Shown in pieces: positions 8,118 through 15,541 of a stretch of DNA of 64,000 nt. The notes beneath the pieces were generated by a model that worked only from the letters and a program-made list of their open reading frames with translations, had not been told where the DNA came from and made no database searches. The position numbers and the translations under genes are program-made. Source of the stretch: an uncultured Bacteroidota bacterium (lineage in GTDB: Bacteria; Bacteroidota; Rhodothermia; Rhodothermales; Salinibacteraceae); the NCBI GenBank assembly GCA_913055845.1, contig CAJXKO010000002.1, positions 1-64,000 on the forward strand, in the 5' to 3' direction. Numbering within the stretch: the stretch's first letter is position 1; every line of letters begins with the position of its first letter.

Positions 8118-12467
<4,350 letters not shown>

Positions 12468-12495
12468 CGCCCGCAAGGTCATCCACAGCATTCTG

Positions 12496-12535
12496 TCGCC
12501 CCGGCCCGCCCACCTGGCGGGTCGGGGCGATGGTA
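12496..12535 (+). terminator. Hairpin terminator after rpoC
   Basis: A 15-bp stem (TCGCCCCGGCCCGCC with GGCGGGTCGGGGCGA, one G-U pair) closes a five-base loop 28 bases after the rpoC stop. The following TGGTATTTGG is only modestly T-rich. The stem strength and place argue for termination of the tuf-rpoC region. Confidence 0.6.
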
Positions 12536-12579: not shown

Positions 12580-14046
12580 ATGCCAAACAACGTGTTGTCT
12601 ATCGGGGACGGGACAACTGCCCTGCTGGCCCTAATTGGGCTTGGGGGGTTGATCGGATTGGGGGAAGGCCTTCGGCGCTGGGGGGCTCCGGCCGCGACGA
12701 CGCGACGCCTAGTACATGTGGGCGTGGGACTGTTCGTCGCAGTGACGCCGCTGGTCTTCACGCGGCCGCTGCCGGTGTACGGGCTCGCCGTGGTGTTCAT
12801 ATTCGTCAACATTACCGCGCGAACCAGACACTGGTGGGCGGGCATCCACGAGGCGCGCCCGGAGAGCTGGGGCACTGTGGCCCTTCCCCTCTCGGTACTG
12901 CCCGCGATGGCGCTCACGTGGTCCGCGGACCCCGATCGCCTCGTCGCGTTCCAGGTGGCCTATCTTGTTCTCGCCCTGGCCGATCCGGCGGCGTCGTGGG
13001 TCGGGGAGCGACGCGGTCCTGAGGCCTCGTTAGGAAGCAGCACCGTGCGGGGAAGCCTTACCTTCGCGGCAATCGCGTTCGGTGTCGCCGCGTCGATGCT
13101 CCTGGGAAGCCGGGAGTGGGCCCTGCCGTACGGGTTTGCGGTGGCTACGGGGACGACACTGGTGGCCACCCTCGTGGAGACCATCAGTCGGCAGGGATGG
13201 GATAACTTCTTCGTGGTCATTGCCATCATTCTTGTGATGGTGCCCATTCAGGAGGGGGTTCTGTCGATCATGGGATTGGGAGGGGGACTTGTCCTCGGGG
13301 CCGGCTTTGGCGGGCTCGCGTACTGGTCGGAGGCGTTGGACGCCCGTGGGGCCGTTGCAGGAGGACTCTTTGCGGTGTCGCTCGTGGCACTAGGCGGTAG
13401 TCCGTGGGTGGTGCCGGGTGTTGTCTTTTTTGGATTATCGAGCCTGCTCACGGGTCTGACGGAGCGCGGCCAGTCGACGGAAACGATGCGTCGGACACAG
13501 GGACAGGTGTTGGCGAATGGTGGAGTGGCGTGGGTGGCACTTGCCGTTGCCGCGGCGGCGCCCTCCCTAAAGGTGTACAGCTACGTGGCTTTCGTAGGGG
13601 CCTTGGCTGCCGCCGCGGCCGATACCTGGGCCACGGAGCTGGGTCAGTGTTCTTCCCGACCCCCATGGTCGCTCCGAGAGGGGCGGCGAGTGCCGGTCGG
13701 GACCTCGGGGGCCGTGTCGGTCGCTGGCACGGCGGCCGCACTGGCCGGGGCCGGGAGCGTGGTGGGGGCGGCACTCTGGATGGAGGGACCGTTGACGGCA
13801 CCGACGGGCTCTACGGTTCTGCTTCTGCTAGGGGCGGGACTGGCCGGCATGGGGGCGGACAGTGCGGCCGGAGCGTTTTTGCAAGCTCGATACCGCATGC
13901 CCGGTTCCGATGCGCTTGTCGAGAATCCTCCCTCAGAGAGGCGTCCGGTTCAAGGGTGGTCGGGCATCCACAACAACGTCGTCAATGTCATTGGTACGAC
14001 TACGGGGGCCGTCGCGGCGCTTCTGGGCTTCGGGGCCATGGGGTAG
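12580..14046 (+). CDS. Fused phytol/dolichol-kinase-like and DUF92 membrane protein
   Basis: This 488-residue integral membrane protein has two halves. Residues about 1-220 resemble the CTP-dependent polyprenol/phytol kinase (VTE5/SEC59-like) family, with the ADPAASWVGERRG motif followed by an SSTVRGSLTF segment. Residues about 250-488 match DUF92 (TIGR00297), the family that includes plant VTE6 phytyl-phosphate kinase, with QVLANGGVAW, AAAADTWATELG, VGTSGAVSVAGT and HNNVVNVIG. Together the halves could phosphorylate an isoprenoid alcohol twice to the diphosphate; this is inference. The start at 12580 is chosen because the longer frame overlaps the end of rpoC. It follows the rpoC hairpin and precedes a symporter. 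Confidence 0.75.
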   Translation: MPNNVLSIGDGTTALLALIGLGGLIGLGEGLRRWGAPAATTRRLVHVGVGLFVAVTPLVFTRPLPVYGLAVVFIFVNITARTRHWWAGIHEARPESWGTVALPLSVLPAMALTWSADPDRLVAFQVAYLVLALADPAASWVGERRGPEASLGSSTVRGSLTFAAIAFGVAASMLLGSREWALPYGFAVATGTTLVATLVETISRQGWDNFFVVIAIILVMVPIQEGVLSIMGLGGGLVLGAGFGGLAYWSEALDARGAVAGGLFAVSLVALGGSPWVVPGVVFFGLSSLLTGLTERGQSTETMRRTQGQVLANGGVAWVALAVAAAAPSLKVYSYVAFVGALAAAAADTWATELGQCSSRPPWSLREGRRVPVGTSGAVSVAGTAAALAGAGSVVGAALWMEGPLTAPTGSTVLLLLGAGLAGMGADSAAGAFLQARYRMPGSDALVENPPSERRPVQGWSGIHNNVVNVIGTTTGAVAALLGFGAMG

Positions 14047-14176
14047 TTGCGGATGGTGGTGCGTTGAGGCTGAACCCCGGTCGTGGAAGAGGGGTTGTGG
14101 AGGAGGGGGATGAGCCTTTAGTTTAGGCGTGGTGTGTGCCGTGCGTGGGCACCGCCCGGTCTGTTTCTTTGCCCAA

Positions 14177-15541
14177 ATGGACGTGCTTATGCCTTGGTAC
14201 AAGAAGCTCCACTGGCAAATTATCATCGGCCTCGTGCTGGGTCTCATCTACGGGATCATCGCCGCGTCGGCGGGATGGGGACAGTTCACGAGTGACTGGA
14301 TTGCTCCGTTCGGGACCATCTTTCTGAACCTGCTGCAACTGATTGCCGTCCCGCTGATCATCGCGTCGCTCATCGTGGGGGTTGCCTCTCTCGGGGATTT
14401 AGAGCAACTCTCTCGTATCGGAGGAAAAACGCTCGGCATCTACGTGATCACCACGACCGTAGCGCTCGTCGTAGGTCTGGTGCTCGTCAACAGTCTGGAG
14501 CCGGGCACGACGGTCCCGCAGGAGATGCGCACTCAGTTGGAGCAGACGTACCAGGGCGACATTGAAGAGAGCATGGAGATGGCCAAGCAGGCGGAGGGCC
14601 GAGGGCCCTTGCAGCCGCTGGTGGACATGGTGCCCTCCAACTTCTTCGCGTCGGCCTCGGACAATGGCAACATGCTCCAGGTCGTCTTCGTCGCCATCTT
14701 CTTTGGCATCGGGTTGCTCCTGCTGCCGAAAGAGGACGCGCGGCCGTTGTTGAACATTTTTGAGAGCTTGTTCGAGCTGATTATCAAAGCGGTGGAACTG
14801 ATCATGCTCACCGCACCGGTGGGCGTTTTTGGACTCCTGGCGGATGCTATTACCTCCATTGCGGCGGGAAGTCCGACGGATCTGGCCAGTCTGCTTGGGG
14901 CACTGGGGCTTTACTGTCTGACGGTGGTCATTGGGCTGGCCGTGATGGTATTCGGGGTCTATCCCCTGTTTATGTCCCTCTTCACCTCCATCTCCATTCC
15001 CGACTACTTCCGAGCCATCGCCCCGGCCCAACTCGTGGCTTTTTCCACCTCCTCCAGTGGGGCCACGCTGCCGGTAACCATGGAGGTGTCCGAGAAAAAC
15101 CTCGGGGTTTCGGAGGAGGTGTCGTCGTTTGCCCTCCCGCTCGGGGCCACGATTAACATGGACGGCACAGCACTTTACCAGGCCGTCTCGGCCGTCTTTA
15201 TTGCGCAGGTGCTGGGCATCAGCCTCGCCTTCACGCAACAGCTTAACATCATTCTCATTGCGGTCCTGGCCTCCATCGGCACCGCGGCAGTGCCCAGCGC
15301 CGGCATTGTGATGCTGGTGGCCATTTTGGAGTCGATTGGCGTGCCGAGCGCGGGCCTTGCCTTGATCCTCGGGGTCGATCGCCCGCTCGACATGTTGCGC
15401 ACCGCGAACAACGTGACCGGCGATACCATGGTCGCGTCCGTGGTCGCGGCCTCTGAAAACCAGCTTCGCTTTCCGACGGACGGAGTGAGTGTCGCAACCT
15501 CGGACGTGCAGGGGGCCATCCATCAGGAGACTGCCGGGTAG
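14177..15541 (+). CDS. Dicarboxylate/amino acid:cation symporter (DAACS family)
   Basis: The 454-residue polytopic membrane protein has the family signatures: the serine-rich loop AFSTSSSGATLP, then LPLGATINMDGTALYQ (the NMDGT motif), and RTANNVTGDTMV in the last helix. These build the substrate and sodium/proton sites of the GltP/GltT/DctA group. Substrate is probably glutamate, aspartate or a C4-dicarboxylate, which cannot be told by eye. The start may be ATG 14177 or 14189. The soluble loop around residues 100-150 is acidic. Confidence 0.88.
   Translation: MDVLMPWYKKLHWQIIIGLVLGLIYGIIAASAGWGQFTSDWIAPFGTIFLNLLQLIAVPLIIASLIVGVASLGDLEQLSRIGGKTLGIYVITTTVALVVGLVLVNSLEPGTTVPQEMRTQLEQTYQGDIEESMEMAKQAEGRGPLQPLVDMVPSNFFASASDNGNMLQVVFVAIFFGIGLLLLPKEDARPLLNIFESLFELIIKAVELIMLTAPVGVFGLLADAITSIAAGSPTDLASLLGALGLYCLTVVIGLAVMVFGVYPLFMSLFTSISIPDYFRAIAPAQLVAFSTSSSGATLPVTMEVSEKNLGVSEEVSSFALPLGATINMDGTALYQAVSAVFIAQVLGISLAFTQQLNIILIAVLASIGTAAVPSAGIVMLVAILESIGVPSAGLALILGVDRPLDMLRTANNVTGDTMVASVVAASENQLRFPTDGVSVATSDVQGAIHQETAG

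What the first reader, a model, noticed from the sequence alone, without database searches (positions are those of the whole stretch)
12580..14046. Fusion of a phytol/polyprenol-kinase-like domain with a DUF92 (VTE6-like) domain
The two plant enzymes of phytol salvage, VTE5-like and VTE6-like, appear in one protein here. One protein could turn an isoprenoid alcohol into its diphosphate in two steps. This organism seems non-phototrophic for chlorophyll, so the substrate may be another isoprenoid alcohol feeding quinone, carotenoid or retinal production.
Basis: partly seen in the sequence, partly recalled or inferred. Interest (0 to 1): 0.55.

Follow-up and report, generated by a model that had tools for sequence, protein, structure and literature searches.

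The report
Two fused membrane lipid-kinase-like domains
This gene encodes a membrane protein made of two joined lipid-kinase-like domains, an arrangement already known and widespread in related bacteria; the unusual point is that in this salt-loving genus the first domain has lost a lysine of its nucleotide-binding motif yet still evolves under constraint.

Summary
Window 12580-14046 (+) is one 488-aa ORF. Its C-half is a clear DUF92 domain (PF01940, 163 bits). Its N-half matches no library model by itself, but through relatives it belongs with the phytol/dolichol-kinase-like CTP enzymes.

The fusion is not new. A 2015 paper describes it in Methanosarcina, and 79 of the 80 relatives fetched carry it in one frame (Marinimicrobia, KSB1, Chlorobi, Ignavibacteria, Calditrichota, Rhodothermales); these were the best-scoring 80, so not a frequency.

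The Lys of the CTP motif is K or R in 81 of 82 fusions outside the genus (1 X) and Ala/Ser in 10 of 10 inside it. The other near-invariant N-half catalytic residues are kept, and both halves show similar purifying selection, so decay is not indicated. The genus's separate single-domain kinase-like paralog lacks the same Lys.

A reciprocal family, with Lys-bearing kinase half and degenerate second half, occurs in 9 genomes.

Best reading: a two-step isoprenoid-alcohol kinase whose halves are separable modules and whose first half has an altered nucleotide site here. No activity or substrate is shown. I tested a K+-for-lysine idea and found no support.

The parts
12580..14046 (+). Fusion ORF, 488 aa plus stop
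   Evidence: homologues start at query residues 1-16 and end at 477-488 in 18 of 41 relatives
12607..13263 (+). N-half (about residues 10-228), kinase-like CTP-enzyme domain of the VTE5/dolichol-kinase type
   Evidence: model of the N-half alone pLDDT 90.8; top solved matches are CdsA, 4q2g Z 7.5 rmsd 4.2 over 148 residues
12703..12717 (+). R42-R43-x-x-H46, basic clamp (R42 and H46 in 92 of 92 fusions)
   Evidence: an Arg-Lys-His clamp is proposed by docking for the Plasmodium prenol kinase (PMC10849223, passages)
12982..13005 (+). D135-x-x-A138-x-x-x-G142, first part of the CTP-enzyme motif, kept
   Evidence: D135 and G142 in 82 of 82 outside and 10 of 10 inside the genus; motif from PMC5853391 (passages)
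13036..13053 (+). Residues 153-158, where the CTP-enzyme motif K-K-T-x-E-G reads without Lys or Glu; the near-invariant Lys is Ser154 (13039-13041)
   Evidence: position 154 is K 78, R 3, X 1 of 82 outside the genus; A 7, S 3 of 10 inside
13177..13206 (+). E200 ... D208-N209, kept
   Evidence: 82 of 82 outside and 10 of 10 inside the genus
13303..14010 (+). C-half, DUF92 (PF01940), VTE6-like
   Evidence: whole-model match of residues 320-488 to CdsA 4q2e, Z 5.5, rmsd 3.3 over 132 residues
13618..13644 (+). A-D348-T-W-A-T-E-x-G, DUF92 core motif
   Evidence: D348, T349, T352, E353, G355 invariant in 92 of 92
13699..13728 (+). G-T-S-G-x-V-S-x-x-G motif of DUF92, aligned by hhalign with the Lys motif of the N-half; it bears no Lys
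13858..13884 (+). D427-S-x-x-G431-x-x-x-Q435, second DUF92 acidic motif
   Evidence: Invariant in 92 of 92
13972..13986 (+). N465-x-x-x-N469, end motif of DUF92
   Evidence: Invariant in 92 of 92
8118..12467 (+). rpoC, directly upstream on the same strand; the fusion follows rpoC in all 8 genus members of the class sample

Best explanation
The protein is a membrane enzyme of two related intramembrane CTP-enzyme domains. The N-half (VTE5/dolichol-kinase type) would phosphorylate an isoprenoid alcohol, and the C-half (DUF92, VTE6 type) would add a second phosphate, giving a prenyl diphosphate that returns to quinone, carotenoid or retinal synthesis. Shown here: the two domains, their folds by prediction, the conserved residues, the fusion's spread, and similar constraint on both halves. 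Inferred: both activities, CTP as donor, geranylgeraniol/farnesol-type substrate, and that the N-half still works here with an altered nucleotide site, since its Lys is replaced by Ser while every other near-invariant catalytic-type residue stays.
For: DUF92 at 163 bits. N-half relatives match CTP_transf_1 and a single-domain kinase-like family. Confident models whose CdsA matches cover both halves (Z 5.5-7.5, under the level the tool calls clear). R42, H46, D135, G142, G158, E200, D208, N209 and the DUF92 motifs kept in 10 of 10 genus sequences. dN/dS: N-half 0.19-0.43 over 8 pairs, C-half 0.17-0.44 over the 7 pairs where it could be computed. The superfamily tolerates this site without Lys: DUF92 itself has none there, and the single-domain paralog lacks K/R in 27 of 70 genomes. 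Literature seen as passages: VTE5 and VTE6 as phytol and phytyl-phosphate kinases (PMC9782597); DUF92 fused to a dolichol-kinase-like domain and linked to uppS in archaea (PMC5898192).
Against: The Lys of the CTP motif is absent, and mutations of conserved residues in that region of dolichol kinase reduce or abolish activity (PMC11542857, passage). The halves are often apart: 8 of 10 tested genomes of families f17, f18, f19 and f21 have DUF92 but no detected N-half relative at E <= 1, and six f3 genomes have the single-domain kinase-like gene without DUF92. The gene is a remnant in one genus member, G006. No isoprenoid gene neighbour recurs in the clusters as read. No activity or substrate was measured.
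Confidence: 0.45

Rival explanations
1. In this genus the N-half is a non-catalytic partner: it binds or delivers lipid to the DUF92 half, which alone is active and works on a phosphorylated substrate made elsewhere.
For: The CTP-motif Lys is lost in 10 of 10 genus fusions. In sister genus g3 the gene at the same place behind rpoC (G014) is DUF92 alone. DUF92 occurs without a detected N-half relative elsewhere in the class. A reciprocal family keeps the kinase half and has a C-half without DUF92 motifs.
Against: Only the one near-invariant site changes while R42, H46, D135, G158, E200 and D208-N209 all stay, and the N-half is under similar purifying selection to the C-half. The genus's single-domain paralog lacks the same Lys, so the genus would have no Lys-bearing copy at all outside G007.
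Confidence: 0.27
2. The protein acts on other lipids, for example as a CTP-dependent diacylglycerol kinase or CDP-alcohol-type enzyme in phospholipid metabolism, and not in isoprenoid salvage.
For: Both halves resemble CdsA in fold, and diacylglycerol, phytol and farnesol kinases are treated as linked membrane kinase classes in one paper (PMC13397572, passages; EC names recalled). No isoprenoid neighbour was recognised.
Against: DUF92 is characterised only as the phytyl-phosphate kinase VTE6 (PMC9782597, passages). Each of the 30 relatives examined has its own CdsA with the signature region intact or nearly so.
Confidence: 0.18
3. The missing Lys is replaced by a K+ ion in a potassium-rich cytoplasm, so the first kinase is K+-dependent here.
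For: The genus has the most acidic RpoC of 54 genomes (0.037-0.054 net acid fraction), and the Lys is gone in both paralogs. Lys/K+ exchange precedents (pyruvate kinase, membrane pyrophosphatase) are recalled only.
Against: Across 28 genera, Lys/Arg at this site in the single-domain paralog does not follow RpoC acidity (Spearman 0.036, p 0.86), and it is also lost in non-acidic families f5, f2 and f15. The CdsA Lys of the same motif is kept in 30 of 30.
Confidence: 0.05

Closest known systems
arCOG02245 / COG1836 proteins with an N-terminal dolichol-kinase-like domain (Mbar_A3310, Methanosarcina barkeri; PMC5898192)
   Same: Same order of domains: dolichol-kinase-like N-half followed by DUF92 C-half
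   Different: The paper says the two catalytic aspartates are kept in both halves there; here the aspartates are also kept but the motif Lys is Ser. I had no Methanosarcina sequence to compare
Plant VTE6 phytyl-phosphate kinase (COG1836)
   Same: DUF92 C-half; A-D-T-W-A-T-E, G-T-S-G, D-S and N-x-x-x-N motifs
   Different: Only 58 bits of TIGR00297's 205.85; no chlorophyll-type pathway established here; substrate unknown
Plant and cyanobacterial VTE5 phytol kinase, farnesol kinase, dolichol kinase (CTP enzymes with D-x2-A-x3-G-x3-G-x8-K-K-T-x-E-G)
   Same: D, A, G, T, G of the motif, basic R-R-x-x-H clamp, late E and D-N
   Different: Both Lys and the Glu of the motif are absent here; no characterised VTE5 sequence was available to compare directly
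CdsA, CDP-diacylglycerol synthase (4q2e, 4q2g)
   Same: Best solved-structure match of the N-half, and one match of the C-half
   Different: Low Z (5.5-7.5); CdsA signature absent; CdsA is a separate gene in the same genome

Membership tests
DUF92 / COG1836 (VTE6-like) | Match to PF01940 over its curated cut-off | tested here: met
   163.3 bits against 27.5, profile 5-251 of 251
DUF92 / COG1836 (VTE6-like) | Invariant acidic and Asn motifs of the family | tested here: met
   D348, E353, D427, N465, N469 in 92 of 92 fusions
DUF92 / COG1836 (VTE6-like) | TIGR00297 equivalog cut-off | tested here: not met
   58.2 bits against 205.85
DUF92 / COG1836 (VTE6-like) | Prenyl-phosphate kinase activity | not testable with these tools
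   No assay possible
VTE5 / dolichol kinase type CTP kinase | D-x2-A-x3-G ... T-x2-G and late E, D-N | tested here: met
   Kept in 10 of 10 genus fusions (8 T, 2 S at the T site); motif from PMC5853391 passages
VTE5 / dolichol kinase type CTP kinase | Lys of the K-T-x-E-G loop that is thought to be part of the CTP site | tested here: not met
   Ser154 here; A or S in 10 of 10 genus fusions, K/R in 81 of 82 others
VTE5 / dolichol kinase type CTP kinase | Match to a curated family model | tested here: not met
   No Pfam match up to E 1 for the N-half; 5 of 17 N-half relatives match PF01148
VTE5 / dolichol kinase type CTP kinase | Direct similarity to a characterised VTE5 | not tested
   No characterised VTE5 sequence was in reach; nearest is a profile match to an uncharacterised single-domain family
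CdsA fold | Structural match to a solved CdsA | tested here: inconclusive
   N-half Z 7.5 and 7.4, C-half Z 5.5, below the level that excludes a common helical arrangement; Foldseek found nothing at E <= 0.001

The most novel reading that the evidence does not exclude
The two halves are reciprocally dispensable catalytic modules that persist as partners: in this genus the N-half has become a constrained, non-catalytic lipid-handling partner of an active DUF92 kinase, while in a reciprocal family (9 genomes) the DUF92 half has become the non-catalytic partner of an active, Lys-bearing kinase half.
Probability: 0.2. Interest if true: 0.5.

Novelty: new variant of a known kind. Interest (0 to 1): 0.32.

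Why it matters
Genes for prenol salvage are known in few organisms, and reviews call the second kinase poorly characterised outside plants (PMC9782597, passages). A single bacterial protein carrying both candidate steps, with a natural series of Lys-bearing, Lys-less, DUF92-only and kinase-only relatives in one order, would make it possible to ask which half does what. The fusion itself is not a discovery; the genus-wide Lys loss and the reciprocal family are the parts worth an assay.

Tried and rejected
K+-for-lysine idea: I proposed that a potassium-rich cytoplasm lets K+ replace the Lys (note). A 70-genome survey of the single-domain paralog gave R 27, K 16, A 13, S 7, C 4, H 3. My first acidity proxy, neighbouring ORFs, was poor. 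RpoC acidity over 54 genomes in 28 genera gave no association (rho 0.036, p 0.86). One search had read two RpoC genes (G058, G131) in the wrong frame and gave rho 0.094 by genus and a genome-level Mann-Whitney p 0.046; one search corrected the two rows and repeated only the genus-level test, and genomes are not independent. The idea is kept only as a weak rival.

Decay of the N-half: rejected as a simple account because the two halves have similar dN/dS.

Functional neighbours: clustering of 473 flanking ORFs from the 80 loci gave no cluster I could read as isoprenoid; I did not run family searches on the clusters, so this is from reading sequences and recall.

Database dead ends: first genome-contig scan with the single protein found nothing; no PDB sequence match to the whole alignment and only E 0.67 for the C-half; no plasmid match; Foldseek gave only E > 0.001. 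VIA-align also listed K+-dependent Na+-pyrophosphatases for the N-half region of the whole model (Z 7.5); these did not recur with the N-half alone and I treat them as a helical-bundle resemblance. Haloarchaeal relatives, the best independent test of the K+ idea, were out of reach.

Literature: searches showed no bacterial description of this fusion or of the Lys loss; the only fusion statement seen is for archaea. Papers not held: the VTE6 paper, PlantSEED, Shridas and Waechter 2006; what I say of them is recalled or second-hand.

Full report
What is there. The window holds one open frame of 488 codons at 12580-14046 on the + strand, starting 112 bases after the stop of rpoC (8118-12467). The frame is open further upstream (624 codons), but relatives begin at residues 1-16 of the 488-aa form. 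The C-half is DUF92 by a curated model: E 8.6e-48, 163.3 bits, cut-off 27.5. The N-half by itself matches nothing in Pfam or usefully in NCBIfam.

Relatives. In 41 genomes (own plus 40 relatives) 30 have a match, and 18 cover nearly the whole query in one frame; a nineteenth, G034, does so in two pieces of one frame. The genus is Salinibacter-like: G003's chromosome has 3,551,823 bases, which I recall as that of S. ruber, and contigs of G011, G005 and G031 have the sizes of PXTN01000028.1, CAJXLV010000022.1 and CP030158.1. A scan of named genomes confirmed 525 relatives and kept the best 80; in 79 of these one frame of at least 482 aa holds the match, L057 being split. They come from Marinimicrobia, KSB1, Chlorobi, Ignavibacteria, Calditrichota and Rhodothermales records. 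As these were the best-scoring, they over-represent fusions. In a class sample, 98 of 146 genomes have DUF92, 22 of the 98 in frames of at least 440 aa; I confirmed the N-half in those frames only where or 43 covered them. Families f17-f19 and f21 carry DUF92 alone.

Prior art. Section 11 of PMC5898192 (read) describes the same fusion in Methanosarcina barkeri, places both domains in the cytidylyltransferase superfamily, and suggests an isoprenoid step that needs a kinase. A table row of PMC3223725 (passage) lists COG1836 under phytol-phosphate metabolism. PMC9782597 (passages) reviews VTE5 and VTE6. So the architecture and the functional idea are known.

What the N-half is. An N-half alignment of 17 (A3; window plus 16 of the 80 loci) has 5 members matching CTP_transf_1, best E 1.1e-5, the window's not among them as the first member had no match. 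A3 aligns with a single-domain family found in the same genomes (A4) at 97.7%, E 2.3e-12, with R-K-x-x-H, D-x-x-A, T-x-E-G-S, E and D-N in register. Calling that family COG0170 is from recall. The N-half model alone (pLDDT 90.8) has CdsA as its first two solved matches, 4q2g Z 7.5 and 4q2e Z 7.4, and the C-half of the whole model matches 4q2e at Z 5.5. These Z values are below what the tool considers clear. The two halves' profiles match each other weakly, 15%, E 0.0017, but with the expected motifs in register.

The missing lysine. CTP enzymes of this kind carry D-x2-A-x3-G-x3-G-x8-K-K-T-x-E-G (PMC5853391, passages). In 92 fusions aligned (10 of the genus, 82 others; 13 short or split sequences and 7 duplicates left out), position 154 is K in 78, R in 3 and X in 1 of the 82, and A in 7 and S in 3 of the 10. 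Position 158 G, D135, G142, E200, D208, N209, R42 and H46 are kept in all 10 and all 82. The genus also departs from the others at other conserved places, including C-half positions 301 (K) and 306 (D), so the N-half Lys is not the only change. A partial N-half of G012 also lacks the Lys. The genus fusions form one branch in the tree of 53 N-halves, support 95/74, which fits one loss.

Decay or not. Over 8 pairs dN/dS is 0.13-0.43 for the N-half and, for the 7 computable pairs, 0.16-0.44 for the C-half; restricted to the genus pairs the ranges are 0.19-0.43 and 0.17-0.44. Many dS values exceed 1, so ratios of distant pairs are rough. There is no sign that the N-half is free of constraint. Yet one genus member, G006, keeps only residues 7-90 and 389-484 with a stop, and in G014 of genus g3 the gene behind rpoC is DUF92 alone. 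The whole protein evolves fast: 60-64% identity inside the closer genus members where RpoC has 94-95%.

The single-domain paralog. In 70 genomes its corresponding site is R 27, K 16, A 13, S 7, C 4, H 3; in the 11 genus genomes A 9, S 2. CdsA, which has the same motif, keeps the Lys in 30 of 30 genomes. This shows the site can change in enzymes that keep their other motifs. I tried to explain it by K+ replacing the Lys in a salt-in organism; RpoC of the genus is the most acidic of 54, but over 28 genera the site does not follow acidity (rho 0.036, p 0.86).

The reciprocal family. Weak single-domain hits in long frames led to nine proteins of about 460-500 aa (one in an 873-aa open frame) in G068, G081, G083, G085, G111, G117, G124, G145 and G007. 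Their N-half has the Lys motif; their C-half lacks A-D-T-W-A-T-E, G-T-S-G and the rest by inspection, and shows a weak DUF92 trace (E < 0.01) in 5 of 9. Pfam finds no DUF92 in the 4 scanned. They form one branch (98/97) apart from fusions and single-domain proteins. That their C-half descends from DUF92 is therefore likely but not proven.

Are the steps coupled? Not tightly. Eight of 10 tested genomes of f17, f18, f19 and f21 have DUF92 but no detected N-half relative at E <= 1; G132 has one (6.1e-6) and G053 a chance-like one (0.317). Six f3 genomes have the single-domain gene and no DUF92.

Verdict. What is added is the genus-wide loss of the CTP-motif lysine under continued constraint, the position behind rpoC in 8 of 8 genus members of the class sample, and a reciprocal family with the opposite half degenerate. 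All statements about catalysis, donor and substrate are inference.

Noticed in passing
window 12493-12533: The rpoC-fusion gap holds an 18-bp stem with a 5-base loop (whole gap -55 kcal/mol, z -2.03 against shuffles), with no T-run after it; it may be an rpoC terminator or attenuator.
   Followed up: partly
L156 (G000:C64) and CdsA loci: CdsA of the genus has D or E where the CDP-DAG-synthase signature has K before the Asp (K-D to D-D/E-D): D/E in 13 of 30 genomes (10 of g1, 1 of g2, 2 of g6), K in 17 of 30.
   Followed up: partly
L115 (G007:C61), L297-L304: Family of Lys-bearing kinase-like half plus a C-half with only traces of DUF92, in nine genomes; one member weakly matches DUF2339 (E 0.00059, below cut-off).
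   Followed up: partly
L122 (G006:C16:296644-297199): In one genus member the fusion is a remnant: two end pieces 22 bases apart with about 300 codons missing and a stop; a draft-assembly error is not excluded.
   Followed up: partly
window 14129-15541: A GltP-type dicarboxylate symporter-like ORF (name from recall) follows the fusion; a homologous ORF follows it in 5 of 80 loci, all from Rhodothermales-type or Bacteroidetes records.
   Followed up: no
G034:C154, L023/L123: The fusion of G034 lies in an 836-codon open frame and its DUF92 half is matched in two pieces, suggesting an insert in the C-half or a long N-terminal extension.
   Followed up: no
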